From contig OZ035997.1 in assembly GCA_964035015.1 (NCBI GenBank), positions 63,153,904 to 63,217,903 of the forward strand: 64,000 bases of DNA. Direction: 5' to 3'. Of the stretch, positions 6,857 through 44,187 are shown in pieces. Position numbers and translations under genes: made by a program. Numbering within the stretch: position 1 is the first letter of the stretch; each line of letters begins with the position of its first letter. Below the pieces are notes generated by a model. It searched no databases. It saw only the letters and a program-made list of their open reading frames with translations, and was not told the origin of the DNA. The DNA is from Corallium rubrum (Eukaryota > Cnidaria > Anthozoa > Scleralcyonacea > Coralliidae).

Positions 6857-7087
6857 TATTTACAAAGTATAGATCGGTTTAAGTAGCAAAACTGTTACAT
6901 AAATAGAAGATGAAGAGGTGTGAAAAAGGAATGTGTTAATGAGAATTGTTAATGAGGAAAACCTAGGTGTGAGTCGAGGTGAGATGTCGAGAAAGTGGGA
7001 GAGGTAAAAAAAATTAAAGAAAAACCCCAGAACTAAAAAAGTGTCAAAGGGAAAGAACGAATGTTAACATTAAGAGATGGATTCATT

Positions 7088-7866
7088 TTAGCAATGAGAA
7101 GGCTCTCGAAGAAGAAGAACTTCGAGTGGTGAAGAAGCAGAGGTAAAAATTGAGAAATCCTCAAAAGAAACTTCATGACCAGTTGACTTAGTGTGTGCGA
7201 GAACGCTAGATAATTGTGCGTGTGAGAGAGGCTTTCCTGTGTAGGCCGAAATATCCATATGATCTGAGATTCTCCTGTGTAAAAGACGGCAAGTTTCGCC
7301 TATATACGACGCCTGGCAGCGTCGGCACTTAAATTTATAAACTACATGAGATCTCAGTTTAAAGGGTAAACGATCCTTAAAACGAAAAACGTTGGATAGG
7401 CGGCGAATGGGCCGAAAGACAACGCGAAGCTGAATATGGGGGGGAAAAGCTGACGAAATTAGTTTAGAAACCTGTTGACGAATGATTTCCAGTGTAAGGT
7501 AAAACGAAAGTGAATAAGAATTTTGAAGCTGTACTACCAATTAGAGGTGATGGCGCGGAAATTTTATTGAGAAAAGTGCGAAACAATAGTCTAAGAAACG
7601 ATCTGGATATCCGTTTTGTTTCAAAAAATGTCGAAGTTTTCCAGTTCTTGGTGAAAAATACAATAGGAAGAGCTTAGTTTAAAGTACCGAAAGATCAGTG
7701 TAAATAAGACTTTTTTTAAAAACAACAGGAAGAAAACTAGTATCAAAATTGGTAAATAATCCAGTGAAAGTAGGTTTACGATAAACCGAAGTAACGAAAG
7801 ATCCAACGGAGCGATGAATGTTAATGTCGAGAAAAGGTAGTTTGTTGTCTGATTCAATTTCACATG
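7088..7866 (-). pseudogene. PLE reverse transcriptase C-terminus + GIY-YIG endonuclease (left arm)
   Basis: The frame from 7866 downward gives LPFLDINIHRSVG...SVYRKPTFTGLF, the diagnostic late RT motif of Penelope-like elements. After frame breaks around 7550-7690 comes an open stretch of 150 codons ending at 7088, with the linker (KLISSAFP..LRVVFRP), Kd-rich KDRLPFKLRSHVVYKF, and the CxxC-YIGETCR core (CRRCQASYIGETCR) of the GIY-YIG nuclease. The EN domain would nick target DNA to prime reverse transcription. It is 5'-truncated within RT and frameshifted, so it is non-functional. Confidence 0.8.
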
Positions 7867-7897
7867 TAATCTTAATGCAATTAAATCTGATTCAATT

Positions 7898-8585
7898 GTG
7901 AAATTGAATCAGACAACAAACTACCTTTTCTCGACATTAACATTCATTTACACTCTGCTCTTTCGGTACTTTAAACTAAGCTCTTCCTATTGTATTTTTC
8001 ACCAAGTACTGGAAAAATTTTTTGAAACAAAACGGATATCCAGATCGTTTCTCAGACTAATGTTTTGGCACTTTTCTCAATAAAATTTCCGCGCCATCAC
8101 CTCTAATTGTTAGTACAGCTCCAAAATTCTTACTCACTTTCGTTTTACCTTACACTGGAAATCATAGCCTTGAAATTCGTCAACAGGTTTCTAAACTAAT
8201 TTCGTCAGCTTTTCCCCTTATTCAGCTTCGCGTTGTCTTTCGGCCCATTTGCCGCCTATCCAACTTCTTTCGTTTTAAGGATCGTTTACCCTTTAAACTG
8301 AGATCTCATGTAGTTTATAAATTTACGTGCCGACGCTGCCAGGCGTCGTATATAGGCGAAACTTGCCGTCTTTTACACACGAGAATCTCGGATCATATGG
8401 GTATTTCGGCCTACACAGGAAAGCCTCTCTCTCACACACACAATTATCTAGCGTTCCGCCGCGTTCTCGCACACATTAAGTCAACTGGTCATGAAGTTTC
8501 TTTTGAGGATTTCTCAATTTTGACCTCTGCTTCTTCACCACTCGATGGTTCTTCTTCTTCGAGAGCCTTCTCATTGCTAAAATGA
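7898..8585 (+). pseudogene. PLE RT C-terminus + GIY-YIG endonuclease (right arm)
   Basis: Begins at the same RT position as the left arm (KLPFLDINI) but lacks the YRKPT segment. From about 8142 the frame stays open to 8585: EIRQQVSKLISSAFP, then LRSHVVYKFTCRRCQ, SYIGETCRLLHTRISDHM and the STGHEVSFEDFSIL tail. The endonuclease reading frame is more complete than in the left arm and slightly longer at the THNYLAFRRVLAH region. Without the RT core it cannot mobilise itself. Confidence 0.8.
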
Positions 8586-8817
8586 ATCCATCTCTTAATG
8601 TTAACATTCGTTCTTTCCCTTTGACCCTTTTTTAGTTCTGGGGTTTTTCTTTAATTTTTTTTTTCTTTATCTTACCTCTCCCACTTTCTCGACATCTCAC
8701 CTCGACTCACACCTAGGTTTTCCTCATTAACAATTCTCATTAACATATTCCTTTCTCACACCTCATCATCTTCTATTTATGTAACAGTTTTGCTACTTAA
8801 GCCGATCTTACTTTGTA

Positions 8818-10290: not shown

Positions 10291-10383
10291 TGTTGGTGAC
10301 AAAGGGTGTGTTAGTTACATGTAACGTTGAGTATACGGTTTCCCTACTTTTACGTCAGTGCGTCTATATGTAAGTATGGTATA

Positions 10384-10535
10384 GTAGGTTAATACTGCCG
10401 AAACAGAGAACGTAAGTGGTCTAACGTTTCTAGCGAAGGCCCTTCGTCAGAGTTAAACGCGTTTCCCTCTGACGAAGGGCCTTCGCTCGAAACGTTAGAC
10501 CACTTATGTTCTCTGTTTCGGCAGTATTAACCTAC
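10384..10535. repeat. Near-perfect palindrome with hammerhead-like motif in each arm
   Basis: Arms of 69 bp (10384-10452 and 10467-10535) flank a 14-bp loop and differ at only a couple of positions. Each arm carries the conserved block ctctgacgaagg..cgaaacgttag seen at Penelope-like element termini. Confidence 0.85.
10467..10502 (+). ncRNA. Hammerhead-like core in palindrome arm
   Basis: CTGACGA (10469-10475), stem GGGC / GCTC (with one G-U) closed by CTTC, then GAAA (10489-10492) and CGTTAG. This fits the conserved hammerhead core CUGANGA-stem II-GAAA. In the facing arm the last stem base before GAAA is A instead of C. The stem III/cleavage position (GTTAGA) departs from the GUH rule, so it is probably a degenerate or inactive copy. 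Confidence 0.4.
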
Positions 10536-10869
10536 TACCATATTTCGATTGTTGTTTCAACACTGCCTACGCAGCACACTACTTTTATTACACCATATGT
10601 AAGTATTACTGACTCCTGACCAGGAGTCTAGCTTGAGGATAGTTTTTCTCTTATTGTCCAGTTTTGTTCATCAGTTAAAGCAATTTCTAATTTTATTTAT
10701 CAACAGAGTCACTGACAAATTGTGGTTGTGTATACTATATTGCAGCATTTCTAATTGAAAAGCATTTTTTAACATGATCTGATGCAAACATTCTGCTCTA
10801 CAAGTTTGAAGTAATCCCTCCATGCACTGTAATCACATCACATATTGATGATTTTTATATTCATTGTAG

Positions 10870-11065: not shown

Positions 11066-11363
11066 GTACCCGGGCATGGTGGCCCATGACTGCCAACACA
11101 ATAAAATGGATATAACAACATATTTTATTTTTTTATTATTTATATTTGTTATTTACTACTTTTTTTGCAATTAGAAAATATTCTATTTCTAAAAACAGAA
11201 CAAAAATAAAACAAAAATAAAACAAAAATAAAATTAAAAAATAAAAATAAAATTATTTTTATCGTTAGCAGCCCAGCGTTGCCAATAGCATACCACAGTC
11301 CTTTGCGCTAACTCATACTTGGTCTTTTGCGCTTTTACGCTATATTCAATATGGCGGCTGACA
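11066..11363 (+). repeat. Left terminal inverted repeat of the transposon
   Basis: Runs from cccgggcatggtgg to gcggctgaca. Contains an A-rich (aaataaaac)n stretch and ttgcgctaactcatacttgg, all mirrored at 15635-15923. It probably supplies the promoter of the kinase gene. Confidence 0.85.
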
Positions 11364-11438
11364 ATGTGGTCTGGCCATGGCTATATTTTTAGCATATTTT
11401 TGAGTTTTAACACTTGTTTATTCACTTTTGCTTACAAA

Positions 11439-12411
11439 ATGAGTGCCCAACTGTGGCGTAATTACGAACAAAAAATAAAAGCTAAACGAGAAACTAATAA
11501 AAGAAAGAAAACGGAAGCAGGAAACGAAAAAAAGAAGCAGCGTCTTGACTCTGATCATATTATTGTCCAGCTGTTGTCTTCTAAGGTCGAAGGTAAGGCG
11601 CAGAAATATTCGAGAATCGGCCCCCGGGAATTTGTACCATATGAGAACAGTGACCTAACTGTGGAAAACCTTAAACAAGCATGCCGTACTTACTTTTCGT
11701 CAAAAGGGTTAATGGAGAAAAGAATGGTTGTTGATATTCTTGCAGGAGAGCGAGGACCTTCCTGCACTAATTTGGCACAAATACCAGATTTGAAGATTAT
11801 TCATGTGAGATTTATCCCTCATGATAATCATAGCAGTGATAGTGATTATGCGTCTGGTAGTGTGCAAATATCCAGTCAAACCAGCTTCAGCCATGTCCGC
11901 AGTAGCAGACTGTAATTTTGCTGAGCAGATAAGAACACATGTGGCCAACCAGTGCCCAAATGAATTTGGTGTAACATTCTCTTACAACAAAGTTTACATG
12001 GGAAAGATTGTGAATTCATCAGAGTAAGTTACTATTGAAGAGTACATTGATGGCAATTTTAGAAAGTATGTTAACAATGATGGTTTCATTTGTGAGAGAG
12101 AAGAAGGTGACAACATTGAACTATCATTGAAAGAAGAATGCTTGGTTCATTTCTCATTTCACAAAAGTGATGGCAAGATCATGTTACTAGACATCCAAGG
12201 AGCAGGCACAACATTGTGCGATCCAGAGATATCATCATGTGAGCTATTATCAGAAGACCAGCAATACCTTTATTGTGCAGGTAATATGTCAATGATGGGA
12301 ATTGAGAACTTCAAGAAGAGTCACAAATGCAACAAGTATTGCAAAGCTCTTGCCTTGCCTACTGTATGGCCGGATGATGTGGAACATATTTCTAGTACCG
12401 CTTTGTCATAG
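11439..12411 (+). pseudogene. Transposon-borne alpha-kinase-domain protein (broken)
   Basis: Starts MSAQLWRNYEQ with a lysine/arginine-rich segment (residues 12-40, nuclear-localisation-like). A region of unknown function follows (LTVENLKQACRTYF..RMVVDILAGERG), then the alpha-kinase domain: EEYIDGNFRKYVNNDGF, HFSFHKSDGKIMLLDIQGAG, CDPEIS, and the zinc-binding end AGNMSMMGIENF..SHKCNKYC. These match the signature elements of atypical alpha-kinases (MHCK/eEF2K/TRPM type), which phosphorylate Ser/Thr in helical contexts. Breaks seen: a frameshift near 11830-11885 and an in-frame TAA at 12025-12027 just before the EEYIDG motif. The N-lobe with the ATP-binding lysine is not clearly visible. The protein ends at 12411. 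The gene runs convergently to the transposase and starts 75 bp inside the TIR, so it is cargo of the element. Confidence 0.8.
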
Positions 12412-12501
12412 CATACAAGACTTGCAAAACGTTAGCCAATATTTTATAGCATACAAGACTTGCAATTTGCAAAAGCTAATGTTATATTTGGGGTTTGTTC
12501 G

Positions 12502-13142
12502 TGTTACGCGCACCGTAACAAGAATAGTTTTACTCGAGGAATTATATATACAAATTTATTAAAGATATAGGAATATATAGATTAACAAAATATAGAATAT
12601 ATAGCAATACAACTTATAACTAAAAGTTCAAACTTATCTGTCGCGACACAGCTAAATATACTCTTGACAAACTGTCTTTATGCTCGTCGCCGTTTGCCAG
12701 AAGATAGTCCCACGAAATATATTAAATCTGTGACAATAGTTCGTGATCAAGTAGACGCGTTCCAGCATAAACAATTAGAATGATCCACAACGCACAACCA
12801 GATAACGTATAGTTATAAAGTATATATCTTGCAAGTAGAACTCTTAAAATCAACCAACGAACTATCAACTGACAAGGCGCTCTTATATATAGGCAAAGCC
12901 TAAAGCTGCATTTAGCAAATTACATCATTATAGTGATGTCACTCTATTTGTACAATAGCCTGAGTAAGCAAATCTGTGTTGCAACAGTATGGTGCAATAA
13001 TATATGATGCAACAATATAAAACATCAGTGGTGCAATAATATATGATGTAACAATATAAAGATATATTATATTAACGTATTAAATGTCAATAAGATTAAA
13101 GTACTCAATGTCAAGGATGTTCGTAACGCGACCGGCGTAACA
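12502..13142 (+). mobile_element. Probable solo LTR inside the transposon
   Basis: A 640-bp unit starts TGTTACGCGCACCGTAACA and ends CGCGACCGGCGTAACA (TG..CA with matching GTAACA ends). A TATA box (cttatatata at about 12890) lies in the correct relative position. Flanks gttcg / gttct would be a 5-bp target duplication with one mismatch. There are no internal genes. Orientation is inferred from the TATA position. Confidence 0.45.
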
Positions 13143-13683
13143 GTTCTGTTCAAATTTATTGTTTTGTTTGTGTTTAGTTTCTAATAAGGATGGACAGAAT
13201 GTCTTCCCAGAATAGATAAAGATTCGGGATTTTACTATAGATATTTTAAATGCTTGGAACATTCTGAGACATAATAACTTATTAGGGAAAATCTTTATTA
13301 TAAATAATTACAGACATCATGTGGCACCAGGCACATTTGCAGAAACTTGCAAGGAATGAAACTTGCTTTGCAATACCTGGTGTGACTATATGTGAGGCAA
13401 CTTTGAAAAACAGGAAATTGATGTTTTGCATGACATTATGTGTTGCTATAGTATATATAAATGCTTATTTTTCTCAGATTGTCCCAAATATAAAAATCCT
13501 TGAGAATAAGATAAGTGCATTTAGGAGTGACATTTTTGGAAAACAAACAATTAGTTAAATACAAATTTTTAAAGTTGATATTGTTGATATAGTTTATTTA
13601 CAAACTGTTGAGAAAAACAAACTGTAAACAAACTGTAAACAAAGTTATTGTACATTTGTGACTGAAAGTACTATAACATAAAG
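13143..13683. other. Transposon interior, unassigned
   Basis: A short open frame (13319-13558, plus) of 79 codons is not recognisable. Otherwise AT-rich sequence between the solo LTR and the 3' end of the transposase gene. Confidence 0.3.
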
Positions 13684-15600
13684 TTATTGTTGTTCTTTAT
13701 ACTTGTCTTTCAAGTAAGTGAATGCATCTTTGCAGTCCTTTGGTTTGACTTCACCAGGTTCTGGAATTATTTGTTCACATTGCCTTCCTCAAACTTCTTC
13801 CAAATAATCCGCTTCTTCTGGAATATCACACTGAATGCCTGCCTCCTGAAGCTGTTCATTAGTTAATTTCCAACCTATAATGTATTTGTAACTTGATAAT
13901 TACAACTATTTCAAAAGGAAATATTTTTATAATACCAAATATCACTGTATTATTCTTTGCTTATGTGTGATACAAACTGTTTCTGACTCCTGCAACAACT
14001 TACCACATTCCCCTAACCCATATTCTTCAGGGAATTCATAAACATGATTAGGTACACCATCAGGCAAATATGTGTTTTTTTGGTGTCGAATACGATGTGT
14101 ATTCAATACAGTGTCCATGAACACATTGAGTTCCTTTTGCAGCAGCGGAACATACAGATATCCAAGAAGTGACCTGTATATGATAAATAATGGTAATGAG
14201 CATTTCTGTCCGATTATTTTAAATATAATTATTCATTCATTTTAAACTCCACAGTGTAAAAATACAATCAAATTAATTCATTAAATAATCTGCAAATATG
14301 TACATTGCATCATTACAGAAAAGATCCACATCCCTCTAAAGGAGAATGAAAATGCCCCCCCCCCCCCGCCTCCTAGGATAGCAAAATAGCAAAGTCCAGC
14401 AGTTAATAAAGTAATACTGTTTCCCAGTGTCTATGCAGTGACTAATTCATTTGCTCATTGACTAATTGTTGCTGTTACCCCTAATATCACCACTTGCATT
14501 AAATAACACTAGTTTTGTCAATGGGTTTAAGGAAAAGCAGAAATTTCCTCTGGGGGAGGTGTGGATATTTTCCCATTTTGAATCTGAGTACAATCAATAC
14601 CTGTCCAAATCATCATGAGGATCATAGAAGCCTTGATCAAGCAAATATTTGAGGTGGTCCTTGTAGAATTTCTCAAGACGTTCATGTAATTCACGGCACC
14701 ATCGTTCAATCTAAATCATTTTAGAATACAAAGAAGTAGACACGTGTAAGATAGTGTAAAAACCTATGCAGATTGCAATTATATCAGTCTAGTGATTCTA
14801 GTATGCTATCATCCTTATAGATTATCACAGATGTTGTAGAGCAGAAAATTATAAATACCTGATTAGCTGTAGATGGTCCATAAATAACTTTATCCAAGGG
14901 GTCAATGCCATCTCCTTGGTGTCTTCGTAGAAAAAGCATGTAATGTTTCAAGCTTTCCTGTTTCAGTCCCCTTGTCAATGCGAATCTTGGATGATATAGT
15001 TTTAGTTTCATAAAGGTGGTCAAAGTACCATCTGCCAATCAACTTTGGGTCTGAGTGGCTTGTCCATATCTTCAACCAGAGCAGCTTACGGCTAGCTGTA
15101 TCAATGCAGCCATAAATAGCAAGAGGGAAAGTATATCTCGGATACCCCATCAGCTTGGCATGTCCATCAAGGGAATGAACAAAGTTGGGGCCTTTTGTTG
15201 TGAAATTTCCCTTAACACGTTTATTTTTTCCAAGAGCTCTGCCTTCTAGACCATCTGGATCAAGACCATACATTACATTATGAACAAGGTGTCTTGGAAC
15301 ATTAAAGTGATGTACTTGACGGATTTTTTGATGCATTGGACGATATCCGAGCAGTTTCCCAGGCCCGTCCAATTCTTCTTGAACAGCTTCTCTGACGTTT
15401 TGCAGATCCACATTTCGGTCTATGTATTGAATGTTAAAGTTGCGAAGACGTCTGTCAAGACTTTGGAGACTCCATTGATATTGTGAGTAATTTCGTGAAA
15501 CAAAACTCAAAATTTCTTCTCTCTTTAGATTCTCGCGTACATACTTGCGCAAATCATTTTCTAATTCTGTATCGTTATTCCATCCTTTATACCTACTCAT
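13684..15600 (-). pseudogene. IS3EU-like DDE transposase, four exons, broken by one frameshift and one stop
   Basis: Four exons with GT-AG borders and matching phases: 14859-15600, 14601-14710, 14004-14173 and 13684-13874. N-terminal helical DNA-binding region (residues 20-60), then an IS3-type HTH segment (GKLLGYRPMHQKIRQV, residues 81-96), then the rve core: D145 in VHSLDGHAKL, D209 in RIDKGTETG, and E in ANQIERW, about 39 residues after D209. The tail continues LHERLEKFY, FYDPHDDLDR, THRIRHQKN, YLPDGVPNHVYEFPEEYG. Damage: one extra T in a T-run (about 14937-14941) shifts the frame after LHAF, and TGA replaces an arginine codon after DYLEEV in exon 4. It would cut and join the element ends at the TIRs. 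The exact superfamily name is inferred. Confidence 0.82.
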
Positions 15601-15634
15601 TTTGTAATCAATAATACTATGTCAATTTACATAA

Positions 15635-15923
15635 TGTCAGCCGCTATGTTGAATATAGCGTAAAAGCGCAAAAGACTAAGTATGAGTTAGCGCAAAGGAT
15701 TGTGGTATGCTATTGGCAACGCTGGGCTGCTAACGATAAAAATAATTTTATTTTTTAATTTTATTTTTGTTTTATTTTTGTTTTATTTTGGGTTTTTTTA
15801 GAAATAAAATATTTTCTAATTGCAAAAATAGTAGTAAATAACAAATATAAATAATACAAGAATAAAATATGTTGTTATATCCATTTTATTGTGTTGGCAG
15901 TCATGGGCCACCATACCCGGGTT
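15635..15923 (-). repeat. Right terminal inverted repeat of the transposon
   Basis: Reverse complement of 11066-11363 with scattered substitutions and small indels in the A-rich part. Lies 35 bp upstream of the transposase ATG. Confidence 0.85.
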
Positions 15924-18911: not shown

Positions 18912-38801
<19,890 letters not shown>

Positions 38802-39090
38802 GATTAGAACAAGTTGATTGAAGATGTTGAAAAAACTGAAATAAGTGATAATTCTCACTGGGTTTTATAGAAGAAAAGTAAACATAACATGAGGCACAAA
38901 CAACAAACAGCTAAACATATATTGATAACGACCTAGAATTGCAATCATGAAGACAAACAGTTCGGTTTGTAATTAATCCCACGGCTACATGAAAATTAGA
39001 GCAGATACATTTAATTTTACATCGAACTCAACCTATGTTCAGATCATCTGAATCTCAGTAGCTCCATGGCTAGAGCGATCTCACAGGTCA
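38802..39090. other. 5' flank of the sushi/HYR/ShKT gene
   Basis: Presumed promoter and 5' UTR. No core element could be assigned with confidence. Confidence 0.3.
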
Positions 39091-39097
39091 TCAGAAT

Positions 39098-39117
39098 ATA
39101 TATATATATGTCATATG

Positions 39118-39157
<40 letters not shown>

Positions 39158-39172
39158 TTACATATGACAGTT
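39098..39172. repeat. TA/TG microsatellite with flanking inverted tcatatg words
   Basis: (TA)n in two blocks around gtcatatgtatgta, ending atatgagttacatatgac. Confidence 0.85.
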
Positions 39173-39746
39173 ACTGAGTTATCATGTATTACCATCTTGA
39201 ATACAAGACTGGAATTTATAAATATATAATCTTGCGTAAAACCTAGATAAACATATTGACAAAGGTATATAATTACTCAGGCTACTGCCGTAGTCATGTC
39301 TTTGACGTGTTAGTGTAGTTATATATTATTGGTCAGTAATGTCGCTGGCAAGTTTAATTTCTTGATATTATATATGTTACAATCTCTCCCGCCGATTTCG
39401 GCCTAGACCACACCTTACACTAAATGTCGAGCGATTTCTAACGCTAAAAGTTTCTATATATGAATGCCCAACTTACAAAACTAAACAGGCACAAATATAA
39501 ACTGCTTGAATACAATGTTATATAAAATGTCATTGAATTATTTCAATATTGTAAAGAGAACATTGATTATGACTTCCAAATGACGGCTTGACAGGCCGAA
39601 AAGATGCTGTATTGATATTTAATACCGGAAGAGTCTCGACATATAAACGCTATGTGTGGAAATACGTTAAATACAGGGGAACGCGTGTTTTGTGTATTGC
39701 GAATTGTGTTCTTACTGTTCTATTTAGGAGAATTAGATTGCGTTTT
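39173..39746. other. No recognised gene
   Basis: AT-rich, no long open frame, no repeat boundary recognised. Confidence 0.3.
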
Positions 39747-39965
39747 GACTTTTAATTTGTCTGTGATTAATGTGCTTAGACGTTAGATCTTAGCACTGCA
39801 TGTGATAACCTGTGTATGCATGCATGTGATTGCAGCTTTTTTAACACTCCAGTACCTTTTACCCAAAACACCTCCACGTAGTCACTTCAATTTTGCAGTA
39901 GCCCGAGTAAACGCCTGACCAGGCGTCTTGTTGCAATATAGAATACAAAGTTATCCAATTTCTGA
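39747..39965. repeat. Dispersed repeat, second copy of 34648-34858
   Basis: Same orientation and order as the first copy, with a few substitutions and a small tgcatgca expansion. Confidence 0.8.
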
Positions 39966-40045
39966 ATAATTACACGTTTGCATATATGTATATAATTTTA
40001 GTTTTACACACAAACATAGGTTTAATTATTTTGAAACATTCATGT

Positions 40046-40142
40046 GGTTTGGTCAGAAAAACTCTACCCGATCGTAGCTGGGATTCGACGCCGGACCTTC
40101 GGTTTACTTGTCCGACGCTCTACCAACTGAGCTACATGCATG
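40046..40142 (-). mobile_element. tRNA-like SINE head
   Basis: The minus strand contains an A box tagctcagttggtagagc and a B-box-like ggcgtcgaatccc spaced as in a tRNA. The 5' and 3' ends do not pair into an acceptor stem, so it is a SINE remnant and not a tRNA gene. Confidence 0.6.
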
Positions 40143-40673
40143 TATTGCATGATGAATGTTTAAGAGTAGAGATTGTTTTATTCACTCGCGCAATCGGTGG
40201 CCCATTGGGTTGGTTAAACAATAGGATTGTGACCAATATGGCCGCCATTTCACCATTTCTCTGCACCAAAATGGCCGTCGTGACGTCAGATGAAAGGGAA
40301 TAATTGATAGAATTTCAACATGCATCAGGAGCATTATAGAAGCATTCAGAAGATTTTAAGAGAATCTGCATGTATAAACTTTTGGTATGGACATGTATTT
40401 CGTTTATAGAAAAAAAAGGCTTTCGGTAGGAAGGTCTCTGAAATAACAAACACACGTGAACCACATGCAGTTCACATGTGATTTTGGAACAAAACATGTG
40501 GAATTTTTATAAGGCTTGCCAATTTTGAGAGTTAATAACGCAAAGAATATGCATCAGATTCTCCTTAAATGTCCAGTGAGTGCTCCCCAATCCCCTCAGC
40601 TGCATGTTTGTTAAAACAACAAAAATGCCAATATTTTTTTCTCTTCATCACTTTAAGAAAAACTAAATGATAA

Positions 40674-40788
40674 ACAATTATTGGATGAGGTTTTTGTGAT
40701 ATCTGGAATAATCAAGGTTGACGCTGATAACACTTACCGAGAGCCCTGATTATCCAGATATCACAAAAACCGAATCCGATAATTCGTT
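40674..40788. repeat. Foldback element
   Basis: aattattggatgaggttttt..gtgatatctgg is mirrored by ccagatatcac..aaaaaccgaatccgataatt around a 37-bp centre. A short MITE. Confidence 0.7.
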
Positions 40789-42690
40789 TATTATATATTG
40801 TATTCATTATACATACAAGACGAGCCATCTTTTTTTCGTCCTTCCACATAAAAATATCTCAAAACTGTTGCACCAGAAATTTGCGACATTGCAAAACCGG
40901 GTCCCCGTTGCGCAATATAAAAGAAGAGGAATCATATTTCAGTTGAGTCGCGCAAGAGACAAGAAATAAATATAGAAATGCCCACTACGCTGAACAAAAA
41001 TATCGCAGCCTCCAGTAAGATAATGTAAGAGAAAGCGCGTCGTCAGGGTTATATTTTGGTACCTTTTCGGACGAAATCCACCAAATACAACGTCGAATAT
41101 TCTACAAAGATGGATTTCTATTTCGCGCTACTTCACTTACAGCGGGCCATCTCCTCGTCCTGATAATACTGTATATTCAGGAGCAAAATGGAATGGTCAA
41201 ACAGCGCGCGACTTAGTACAACGAAGAATCATTGTGTAGTACAATACTTCTACTTTTCTACTCAAGGTACACAAATGGACTAGCGATGCTGTGTAACTCG
41301 CTACATAACCGTAAAGATCAAGGTATTCGTCATTTTCTTCTAATAAACTATGATTTGCAACGTTAGCATATGGCTAGACTAGCCCTAGAGTTCGTGTTCA
41401 GTTTGGAAAGGGTAAATTTACGAAGATAAACATCAAATATAGCTTGAACTATTCATTTAATTATGTACAGCCTAGAATGAGGTGCACAAAGTTGACTTAT
41501 CTTGCGGTTAGACTTCTGTTTCAATTCTTGTGAAATGCGTAGACTAATTACTTGTTATTGCTAGCCGCCATGTTTTTCCGATGTTGCGCATGCTCAGCAT
41601 CGCGTGTCTCGAGCCTATGGCCATGATGATACTCATAGAAGAGTTTTTTCGCAACTTTGGTCGATCTTTTGGTGTTTTCAGAGTCTTTGTCTTCAAGTAA
41701 TTTTTCGATTTCTTCTACAGTCGAAGACGAAACTCGAGCAGTCGTGGTGTTGCTTTTGCTTGTGTGGAAAGCTACCGCTCGTTAGGAAATCTCGCATTGC
41801 GGGCGCAACCTACGGATTAGTGAATTACCTGCTCACTGATTCCCATAATTAACTGTATGCGCTTAGCAAATGGGAAGACAGGAAGTGACTACAATGTATA
41901 ATAATTGATCTGCTCGCCACTGACAAATCACGATATTTTGTAAAAAACGAGTTCAATAATTGTTTTATTATTCGATTTATTTTTTATTTGACATTGTTTA
42001 CCTGTAATTATGTCCATTTATTTCTTTTCAGCTTGGCTGATCGAGCGATTTACGTTTGCCGAAATTGAGTGTAAGGCACATGAGCAGAATATTATTTGCT
42101 GCAAAACAACATCTCCGGCTAATGCGCATGAGCAGACTGTTATTTGTTGGCAATTATTTGCAGGTGACGTAGCGGTCCCTCAACCAATTAAAGGGAAGAT
42201 AAAAACAAATCGGATGATAATAAAGATTTTCCATTAAGAAAATAATCAATATAGAGTAAATATGTTACCGTGAAAATCATTTTCAACTGATTGCCAAAAA
42301 TATTGCGTGTCAATAATACTCTTCCCACTCATAACTTTGGCTGCCAAACATTTTTCTGTGATATTTTCATAAAAAACTTTAGACAAAGAATTAGTTTGAA
42401 GATATTATTCTTTGTTTTCAATTAAATATAATGAATGATCCTTCTATAACAAAAGCAAAAGACGATTATTTGTAATAGATTACCAAGCGTTAAAAATGCA
42501 ATCAACTTACCTCAAATAAAACGATATTTATTCATTCGCAAAAACAAACAAGCGCGGACTAAGGTCGTTAACCCAATTATTTTTCCCAATCCTAATTTTC
42601 ACAACAATTAATCAAAGCAAATATAACAAACGTTTGGCAGACTTCTCACATGCGCTGAGCTAATAATATATTCAAATAAAGAAAAGTGAA
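40789..42690. other. No recognised gene
   Basis: About 1.9 kb with only short open frames (for example 41604-41852 and 42010-42237), none with recognisable domains. No strong repeat found. Confidence 0.3.
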
Positions 42691-42694
42691 AAGG

Positions 42695-42770
42695 TGGCGA
42701 AACGTCGAGAAAAGTTTTCAATTGATAACAAAATACTGTTCGACGTTTCCAGCGGAGTTCTTCAGAGTAA
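42695..42770 (-). repeat. Inverted repeat with degenerate hammerhead-like block
   Basis: The minus strand reads ctctgaagaactccgctgg then aaacgtcg, and a facing gcgaaacgtcgag lies at 42697. It has the CUGANGA and GAAAC words of the PLE-associated motif, but stem II is nearly lost. Confidence 0.35.
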
Positions 42771-43080
42771 CGTTTAACAGATGAAATGCTTTTGAATCAA
42801 AAAGCTGAGTTTTTTAAAAAATTTTGTAAATTTTCTTCTACGTAACTGGATGATAAATCTCTTGGCCTATACGAGACTGACTAATATTTTAACTATATAG
42901 CAAAACGACGAACTGAATACTGACGAGAAGTTTCTTTTTACTTTAACAAAGACCTTCTCTCAGAAACGTCAAATAACGTCAGTATTTCGGTATCAAAATT
43001 ATTCCCGGCAGTTTAGCACCTTTTCAATTTGCCTCGTCGAAAACCAGCACTCTTTCACACTCTCAAATATCTTAATTGTC

Positions 43081-44187
43081 CCCGAGCCCGGGCGTAGGGT
43101 CGAAGGCCCGGAGCCCGGATGAGGGTGCTAATCTCGACGTGCGTGGAGTCCACTTTACACGCGTGTAGAAAAAGCAAGGGAGACAAAATCTGGAAATAGT
43201 TTATATATATACGTCGTAGGGTGTCACGCGGTACAAATAATATATTGGGCACTGGTGACTAGCTTTGAAGCAAACTTATAGTTATATATTTCCATATTTT
43301 GCGAAACAAAATGGTTTCAAATGGTTTCGTTTTAAACGGAAAGAAGCAGAACAACGAATAAAAGGAGGATACAAACAGCCGGTTTAATATATCTTGAAGA
43401 GAAACCAGAAAACCTGAAGAAACGAAACGTATGGTAAACAAAAACTCGATCTCAATTGTAGTGTTTGTAGTCACAGGCCACTCAGTGGTCTCAAAATGAC
43501 GGTAAGACATTTGTTTTTATTTATTTTGCTGATTGTAATCAGCATTTATTCATTAATATATTCTGTAAACGCCAAGAACGGCACTTTAAATAGAACCCTT
43601 TTAGACACTCGTCAGTTACTGTAAACTTAACCTAGCAACTATCATATAAAGTTTTATACCTTGTCCTTTAATATGTTGTTTTCAAGTTTTTGCTTTACCC
43701 ATTAAGCAGTATATACAGCTTCACGTTTCGTGCTTTCCCTTTGCTACTGTGGACGTGATGTTTTTCATTGACTTAATTGCAAGCACTTATCATAAATACT
43801 CATAGGCTTTGTCCATTTTCTTTTGTCCTGTATTATACAGACTGAAATTTATAGGTTGTCTGTTGTTTTTATCTCCTATTATAAATGTAGTTTTTGAGCT
43901 GTTAACTTTTAATCCTGCCTTTGCAAAACATAAAAGTATTTCCTTTGGAAACTTCCTAAATGGCTAAAAACAATATATTTTTACAACCAGAGTTTAATAT
44001 GAAATCTGTAAGTTTTCCTTTGATATGTTCAACTTTCATTTCAGTTATCCTAATCATAAATTCTGTAATTATCCTGAGGAGTTATATCTGGAGTGCTTAT
44101 TTTAATTGGAAGGTGGGGTTGGTGAGGTGCATTTCAAAAAGCATATAAAAGCAGACGAGGGGTTGTTGCATTTATTTATTTCTAGTT
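43081..44187 (-). repeat. 1.05-kb dispersed repeat, copy 3 (inverted)
   Basis: Reverse complement of copy 1 (35856-36903) with about 5-10% divergence. The GC-rich end is at the low-coordinate side (cgagcccgggcgtagggtcg). Confidence 0.85.

What the first reader, a model, noticed from the sequence alone, without database searches (positions are those of the whole stretch)
11066..15923. DNA transposon that carries an alpha-kinase gene
Seen: long TIRs enclose an IS3EU-like DDE transposase and, convergent to it, a gene whose C-terminus has the alpha-kinase hallmarks (DIQGAG, CDPEI, GNMSMMGIENF..HKCNKYC). Each gene starts less than 100 bp inside a TIR, so both look like native components and not chance flanking sequence. 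Known: alpha-kinases are a small atypical kinase family (MHCK, eEF2K, TRPM6/7). I know of no described transposon that encodes one. Inference: the kinase may regulate transposition or host response, or the element may be the vehicle behind alpha-kinase spread in cnidarians.
Basis: partly seen in the sequence, partly recalled or inferred. Interest (0 to 1): 0.88.

Follow-up and report, generated by a model that had tools for sequence, protein, structure and literature searches.

The report
Jumping gene carrying its own kinase
A dead copy of a cut-and-paste mobile element whose relatives in the same genome usually carry a second gene, for an unusual protein kinase that natural selection has preserved, suggesting that the element needs the kinase.

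Summary
It holds a PF24764-type transposase and, convergent to it, an alpha-kinase gene (PF02816, E 2.7e-25). Both genes are broken here; the kinase lacks its N-lobe.

The kinase is a native part. In the window's own genome the 20 best kinase loci (window included) all have the transposase convergent beside them. By coordinates, 81 of 98 close transposase matches have a convergent kinase within 6 kb, against 0 of 52 divergent ones. Near-identical copies sit in unrelated flanks with different target duplications, so both genes move together. Kinase dN/dS between families is 0.08-0.18, like the transposase; kinase and transposase distances correlate (Mantel r 0.91).

It is not unprecedented: Kojima 2025 states that TET+ IS3EU elements of fungi carry an alpha-kinase opposite to the transposase. 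Added here: a lineage, with relatives in corals and other animals, in which the kinase is a selected second gene with its own N-terminal (ubiquitin-like?) domain. The kinase's target is unknown.

The parts
11069..11074 (.). left target-site duplication CCCGGG (6 bp)
   Evidence: identical to 15916-15921
11075..11363 (+). left terminal inverted repeat, starts CATGGTGGCCC
   Evidence: 288 columns, 93.4% to the right TIR
11439..11912 (+). alpha-kinase gene, first part: basic N-terminus and conserved N-terminal domain (ubiquitin-like by prediction)
   Evidence: tblastn of P0001 residues 1-161, 75% identity; AlphaFold model and Foldseek
11912..11914 (+). junction of an internal deletion (391 bp missing relative to sibling L010; kinase N-lobe lost)
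11914..12411 (+). alpha-kinase gene, second part: C-lobe (DIQGAG, CDPEI, HKCNKYC), interrupted by a stop at 12025-12027
   Evidence: Pfam PF02816 E 2.7e-25 on 12028-12411; tblastn residues 299-447, 72%
12506..13142 (.). about 637-bp insertion absent from sibling copy L010 (possibly a nested element)
13702..14175 (-). transposase, last exons (C-terminal part, with an in-frame stop)
   Evidence: tblastn P0121 residues 288-403; reading
14600..14710 (-). transposase exon with the catalytic-E motif (IERW)
   Evidence: tblastn P0121 residues 252-288, 59%
14856..15600 (-). transposase first exon; frame change at 14932/14933; the two catalytic D (GCID, RIDKGTE)
   Evidence: tblastn P0121 residues 5-252; rva_4 E 2.2e-5
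15635..15915 (-). right terminal inverted repeat, ends CCACCATA
15916..15921 (.). right target-site duplication CCCGGG

Best explanation
This is a dead copy of a two-gene IS3EU DNA transposon. SHOWN: related copies have the order TIR - alpha-kinase (+) - transposase (-) - TIR and move as one unit, leaving a 6-bp (once 7-bp) target duplication. The transposase is a DDE/rve-type enzyme. In intact copies the kinase is a full alpha-kinase catalytic domain behind a conserved N-terminal domain and a lysine/arginine-rich start; it is under purifying selection comparable to the transposase and diverges in step with it. INFERRED: the kinase serves the element rather than the host; it acts in the nucleus in trans, phosphorylating the transposase or chromatin/host factors at the transposition site, and so licenses transposition or shields it from host control. 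The transposase or its complex as main target is about an even bet; the shielding version overlaps with the first rival below. In the window copy neither gene can make a full protein, so it could move only with help from another copy.
For: Co-localisation in the own genome: 20 of 20 fetched loci, L009 being the window itself; 81 of 98 close transposase matches with a convergent kinase within 6 kb, random expectation about 0.3%; 0 of 52 divergent ones; Fisher p 8e-26, rows not fully independent. Controls: 5 of 5 fetched host-like alpha-kinase loci without this transposase. TSD/TIR: 14 of 20 with exact 6-bp TSDs, all different, one with 1 mismatch, one 7-bp, 4 unresolved. Unit transposition: L011/L012 99.1% over 6.6 kb and L015/L016 99.9% over 5.6 kb, in unrelated flanks. 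Selection: kinase between families w 0.08-0.18, transposase 0.09-0.19. Mantel r 0.91 (20 loci) and 0.79 (14 representatives), 0 of 9999 permutations each. Catalytic positions kept, e.g. Lys 168 of 170, Asp389 159 of 159, His433 154 of 154 rows with a residue there. Fold: Foldseek TRPM7 1ia9 E 1.2e-18. Basic N-terminus: 28% K/R in the first 35 residues against 12% in the rest, 131 proteins. Open frame of 380 aa or more in 44 of 123 kinase matches; three of these are host-like and six of the 44 rows also list a stop inside the match.
Against: No result identifies the kinase's substrate, so the mechanism is inference. 17 of 98 close transposase matches lack a convergent kinase within 6 kb; one fetched example (L037) has an intact 418-codon transposase frame and no kinase-domain match in about 3.8 kb downstream (the only hit of 182 kinase queries was P0244, a database protein whose start is itself transposase-like, to the transposase's own start), and no TIR pair was found there. 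Four of 20 loci gave no resolved TIR/TSD. By coordinates the link is weaker for lower-ranked kinases: 70 of the best 100 within 6 kb; 35 of 123 had no listed transposase within 10 kb, although only 150 of 636 transposase candidates were scored, and one of the 35 (the L019 locus) did show a transposase once fetched. dS between families is high (0.9-1.8), so omega values are rough. The NLS reading is weak: motif in 82 of 131 N-termini against 40 of 131 in a control stretch.
Confidence: 0.8

Rival explanations
1. The kinase is a native gene, but its work is counter-defence: it modifies host silencing, DNA-damage or stress proteins so that the host tolerates transposition, rather than acting on the transposase or its complex.
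For: Native and selected. In fungi the same element type adds a TET/JBP dioxygenase, read by Kojima as an anti-silencing gene, between transposase and alpha-kinase (section 25 and passages of PMC12730594). TRPM6/7 alpha-kinase fragments are reported to phosphorylate histones in the nucleus (passage of PMC13143021).
Against: No substrate data; divergence in step with the transposase is at least as easily explained by a partner inside the element, though common descent alone would also give it.
Confidence: 0.35
2. The kinase is passive cargo, a host gene captured once and carried along without benefit to the element.
For: The window copy and many others have broken kinase frames. Sibling copies L009/L010 and L022/L027 show kinase omega near 1 with one reference (0.74 and 0.56 with the other).
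Against: Between-family dN/dS 0.08-0.18, catalytic positions nearly invariant, 44 of 123 matches with long open frames, 81 of 98 association. Omega near 1 between dead siblings is expected and is also seen for the transposase of L009/L010 (1.06).
Confidence: 0.03
3. Chance neighbourhood: a transposon beside, or inserted near, a host alpha-kinase gene.
Against: 20 of 20 loci with the same convergent order, TSDs outside both genes, near-identical units in different flanks, 0 of 5 host-like kinase loci with the transposase.
Confidence: 0.005

Closest known systems
TET+ IS3EU transposons of Pucciniales and Tuber (Kojima 2025, PMC12730594; section 25 and passages read)
   Same: 6-bp TSD, TAYGG..CCRTA ends (stated for the Pucciniales families), IS3EU transposase, alpha-kinase gene in the opposite orientation
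   Different: They also carry a TET/JBP dioxygenase between the two genes; eight ORFs of the window element's interior gave no Pfam match above cut-off, TET/JBP or other. Whether the fungal kinases share the N-terminal domain was not tested (no sequences at hand).
Styx of Zymoseptoria (PMC10853768; passages read)
   Same: IS3EU-related transposase, 6-bp TSD, further genes in the element
   Different: Styx has two genes with DNA-binding motifs and a DUF3577 gene; no alpha-kinase is mentioned in the passages seen.
GingerRoot / IS481EU (PMC10045372; passages read)
   Same: rve-type transposases grouped with IS3EU; GingerRoot also has 6-bp TSD and mostly TA..TA ends
   Different: The word kinase does not occur in that text.
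Host alpha-kinases (TRPM6/7, MHCK A, eEF2K, ALPK1)
   Same: Same catalytic domain and fold
   Different: In a tree of 24 sequences the transposon-type kinases split from TRPM7, MHCK A and five own-genome host-like kinases (FastTree support 0.70, UFBoot 82); they have their own N-terminal domain and lie between TIRs. eEF2K and ALPKs were not in the tree.

Membership tests
IS3EU DNA transposon | 6-bp target-site duplication | tested here: met
   CCCGGG/CCCGGG; 14 of 20 own-genome copies, window included, with exact 6-bp TSDs, one with a mismatch, one 7-bp, 4 unresolved. The candidate end pairs were ranked partly by TSD match.
IS3EU DNA transposon | Termini TA..TA, TAYGG..CCRTA in the fungal families | tested here: met
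   Right end matches; the left end of this copy has one mismatch (CATGG); relatives have TATGG or TACGG, one more a CATGG. Definition from passages of PMC12730594 and PMC10045372.
IS3EU DNA transposon | DDD/E rve-type transposase related to IS3 | tested here: met
   rva_4 PF24764 in relatives, below cut-off in the broken window ORF; D172 invariant, D214 and E253 nearly so in 21 relatives (A2); HTH_21 (IS3-type) only below its cut-off. No Repbase IS3EU sequence was available for direct comparison.
IS3EU DNA transposon | Transposase clusters with Repbase IS3EU in a tree | not tested
   Repbase is not held here.
Alpha-kinase family (PF02816) | Sequence profile and fold | tested here: met
   2.7e-25 in the window piece, 2.4e-35 in relative P0001; Foldseek of the P0001 model, 1ia9 E 1.2e-18.
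Alpha-kinase family (PF02816) | Complete catalytic apparatus in this copy | tested here: not met
   Glycine loop and ATP lysine deleted in the window copy; copies with a full kinase frame exist elsewhere.
Alpha-kinase family (PF02816) | Kinase activity | not testable with these tools
   Needs biochemistry.

The most novel reading that the evidence does not exclude
Eukaryotic rve/IS3-like transposons include two-gene systems built on one plan: a transposase plus a convergent protein-modifying enzyme that acts for the element. One lineage keeps an alpha-kinase; a sister lineage in the same genome keeps a HECT ubiquitin-ligase-like gene in the same convergent slot (Pfam HECT in 2 of 3 loci fetched). 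Genome-wide expansions of alpha-kinases and orphan 'TRPM6-like' kinases in invertebrates would then be transposon genes, and some host alpha-kinases may be domesticated ones.
Probability: 0.35. Interest if true: 0.82.

Novelty: new member of a known kind. Interest (0 to 1): 0.6.

Why it matters
A DNA transposon that must keep its own protein kinase would be an unusual case of a mobile element bringing signalling enzymology to transposition, and it is testable because copies with full-length frames for both genes exist (for example L017). It also offers a likely explanation for kinase-only 'TRPM6-like' proteins in cnidarians, which a 2026 study set aside as misannotated (PMC13143021, passage; I did not check that they are the same records), and possibly for the alpha-kinase expansion reported in rust fungi (PMC4469406, passages). 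Annotators should treat such kinases as candidate transposon genes.

Tried and rejected
Chance neighbourhood and passive cargo were tested and rejected. Searches for the kinase in viral contigs, and for the transposase in viral contigs and prokaryote genome contigs, found no relatives. An early idea that the stop at 12025 could be a splice site was dropped, because the homologous protein runs on in the same frame. Same-contig association outside this genome was only read by eye from longest-contig lengths shared by listed hits (374,143 Exaiptasia LOC110237033 and LOC110237035; 4,408,652 Dendronephthya; 196,530; 1,143,789); this is suggestive, not proof, and only 120 of 123, 120 of 436 and 120 of 252 hits were listed. 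Searches of the own genome with the TIR DNA, with PF02816 and with the HECT-type genes did not complete, so TIR-only copies and the genome-wide HECT association were not counted. The host species was not identified. Prior art was looked for in the held open-access library only; PMC12730594 is the only paper there that holds both 'alpha-kinase' and 'IS3EU'. Repbase entries and papers outside that library were not seen.
Full report
WHAT IS THERE. The window holds a transposon at 11075-15915 (4,841 bp). Its TIRs align over 288 columns at 93.4%. Because CCCGGG is a palindrome it could not be told from TIR in one copy; related copies have similar TIR starts (mostly TATGGTGGCC or TACGGTGGCC) and different duplications, which settles it. 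The end motif occurs at only these two places in the window.

THE TWO GENES IN THIS COPY. The kinase gene runs on the plus strand from 11439; its C-lobe scores E 2.7e-25 against PF02816. A full-length relative (P0001, 447 aa) matches with residues 1-161 up to 11912 and 299-447 from 11914 on, in another frame; the N-lobe is absent from the window. Against the sibling copy L010, 96% identical in aligned parts, the window copy lacks 391 bp there and has about 637 bp more at 12506-13142. An in-frame stop lies at 12025-12027. The transposase is on the minus strand in several exons from 15600 to about 13702, with a frame change at 14932/14933 and a stop in the last exon. So neither gene can make a full protein here. 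Eight further ORFs of the interior gave no Pfam match above cut-off.

THE FAMILY. A database search gave 123 kinase and 436 transposase relatives at E <= 1e-3, 120 of each listed. The full kinase is about 440 aa: basic start, conserved N-terminal domain (IGPREFV..LAGEQGPSC..HVRF), linker, PKSLS..MLKLGK motif, alpha-kinase domain. Among 182 listed kinase relatives aligned, catalytic and zinc-site positions are nearly invariant where a residue is present, e.g. Lys 168 of 170, Asp389 159 of 159, Asp399 157 of 159, His433 154 of 154, Cys439 154 of 160. The model of P0001 (mean pLDDT 78.8) matches TRPM7 kinase 1ia9 (E 1.2e-18), MHCK A and eEF2K. The N-terminal domain alone (pLDDT 80.9) matches no fold at E <= 0.001, but its top hits are mostly ubiquitin-like, PB1 or Ras-binding folds (best E 5.7e-3); I read it as a probable beta-grasp domain.

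OWN GENOME. The window lies in a 474-Mb assembly of 312 contigs. The kinase C-lobe gives 123 matches. I fetched the 20 best (L009 is the window itself): 20 of 20 have the transposase on the opposite strand, convergent. In 14 of 20 I found both TIRs and an exact 6-bp TSD, one more has a mismatch (L010), one has a 7-bp TSD (L015), and four (L014, L019, L025, L028) were not resolved in the stretch fetched. The transposase N-half gives 154 matches, 150 listed and 150 of 636 candidates scored. The listed ones fall into a close class (identity at least 44%, n 98) and a divergent class (at most 38%, n 52); a few genes are split over two rows, and some rows are near-identical copies. A convergent kinase lies within 6 kb in 81 of 98 and in 0 of 52; a random place would have a kinase within 6 kb in about 0.3%. 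At 10 kb it is 85 of 98 and 1 of 52. Seen from the kinases, 70 of the best 100 matches have a convergent listed transposase within 6 kb and 75 within 10 kb.

EXCEPTIONS AND CONTROLS. 17 of 98 close transposase matches have no convergent kinase within 6 kb, 12 of 98 no kinase match within 10 kb; 35 of 123 kinase matches have no listed transposase within 10 kb. These 35 include five of six host-like kinases, and also the L019 locus, where fetching did reveal a transposase, so the coordinate counts are lower bounds. L037 has an intact transposase frame and no kinase-domain match in about 3.8 kb beyond it; no TIR pair was found, so a kinase-free autonomous element is possible. Five host-like alpha-kinase loci have no such transposase in the 9.8 kb fetched; one of them (C295) has a divergent-class transposase 8.3 kb away, not convergent.

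CO-MOBILISATION, CO-EVOLUTION AND SELECTION. Pairs of near-identical elements (L011/L012 99.1% over 6.6 kb, L015/L016 99.9% over 5.6 kb) have no similarity in flanks of up to 1.1 kb and different TSDs: the two genes jump together. Kinase and transposase distances correlate, Mantel r 0.91 for 20 loci and 0.79 for 14 representatives, 0 of 9999 permutations as high. Between families kinase omega is 0.11, 0.15 and 0.18 (P0001 projection; 0.08, 0.13 and 0.17 on P0010) for L009/L011, L010/L011 and L021/L026; the transposase gives 0.11, 0.09 and 0.19 for the same pairs. Five sibling pairs range from 0.28 to 1.04 for the kinase and from 0.22 to 2.2 for the transposase, on few changes; the window pair L009/L010 gives 1.04 or 0.74 for the kinase and 1.06 for the transposase, as expected when dead copies decay. 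dS of 0.9-1.8 makes the between-family values rough. Deeper comparisons are saturated at synonymous sites.

MECHANISM. Shown: anatomy, joint mobility, selection. Inferred: a kinase kept this way most likely serves the element; with its basic N-terminus (28% K/R in 35 residues against 12%; an NLS-like motif in 82 of 131, control stretch 40 of 131) it most likely works in the nucleus, on the transposase or on chromatin. TRPM6/7 alpha-kinases are reported to phosphorylate histones after cleavage (PMC13143021, passage). The main rival is counter-defence, for which the fungal TET/JBP partner gene is an analogy.

KNOWN AND NEW. Kojima 2025 (PMC12730594; [quoted passage not shown] So an alpha-kinase in IS3EU is known in fungi. 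My searches of the held open-access library found no paper on it in animals or on its selection. Rust fungi have an expanded alpha-kinase family (PMC4469406, passages), and a 2026 study noted cnidarian 'TRPM6-like' proteins with only a kinase domain (PMC13143021, passage); the present family includes proteins so named (P0016 Saccoglossus, P0267 Paramuricea), so transposon origin is a likely explanation of such proteins, although I did not check that they are the same records. In a small tree (24 sequences) transposon-type kinases separate from five own-genome host-like kinases, TRPM7 and MHCK A (FastTree support 0.70, UFBoot 82).

SIDE FINDING. Three loci of the divergent transposase class were fetched (L034, L035, L036). 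Two have a HECT ubiquitin-ligase domain on the opposite strand downstream (Pfam E 6.2e-8 and 8.8e-14); the third has a convergent 543-codon frame that resembles HECT by eye but has no Pfam HECT match. Their TIRs were not resolved. One paper search for such a combination found none.

Noticed in passing
L034, L035, L036 (own genome, divergent rva_4 transposase class): A HECT ubiquitin-ligase domain lies convergent to the transposase in 2 of 3 fetched loci: a sister lineage may carry HECT in the slot where this one has the alpha-kinase.
   Followed up: partly
window 12506-13142: About 637 bp present in this copy but not in sibling L010, perhaps a nested non-autonomous element.
   Followed up: partly
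window 6871-8808: Large inverted repeat (pieces 94-99% complementary) around about 480 bp, possibly another TIR element.
   Followed up: no
window 35855-44186: Long inverted repeat arms (91-98% complementary) about 6-8 kb apart.
   Followed up: no
window 10382-10537: Palindrome of two 78-bp arms without spacer, 95% complementary, about 530 bp left of the element.
   Followed up: no
P0016, P0267 (database proteins): Proteins named 'TRPM6-like' in Saccoglossus and Paramuricea belong to the transposon-type kinase family, a likely misannotation.
   Followed up: partly
P0244 (database protein): A predicted protein whose first residues resemble the transposase start and which continues as the kinase: probably a gene model fused across parts of such an element.
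   Followed up: no
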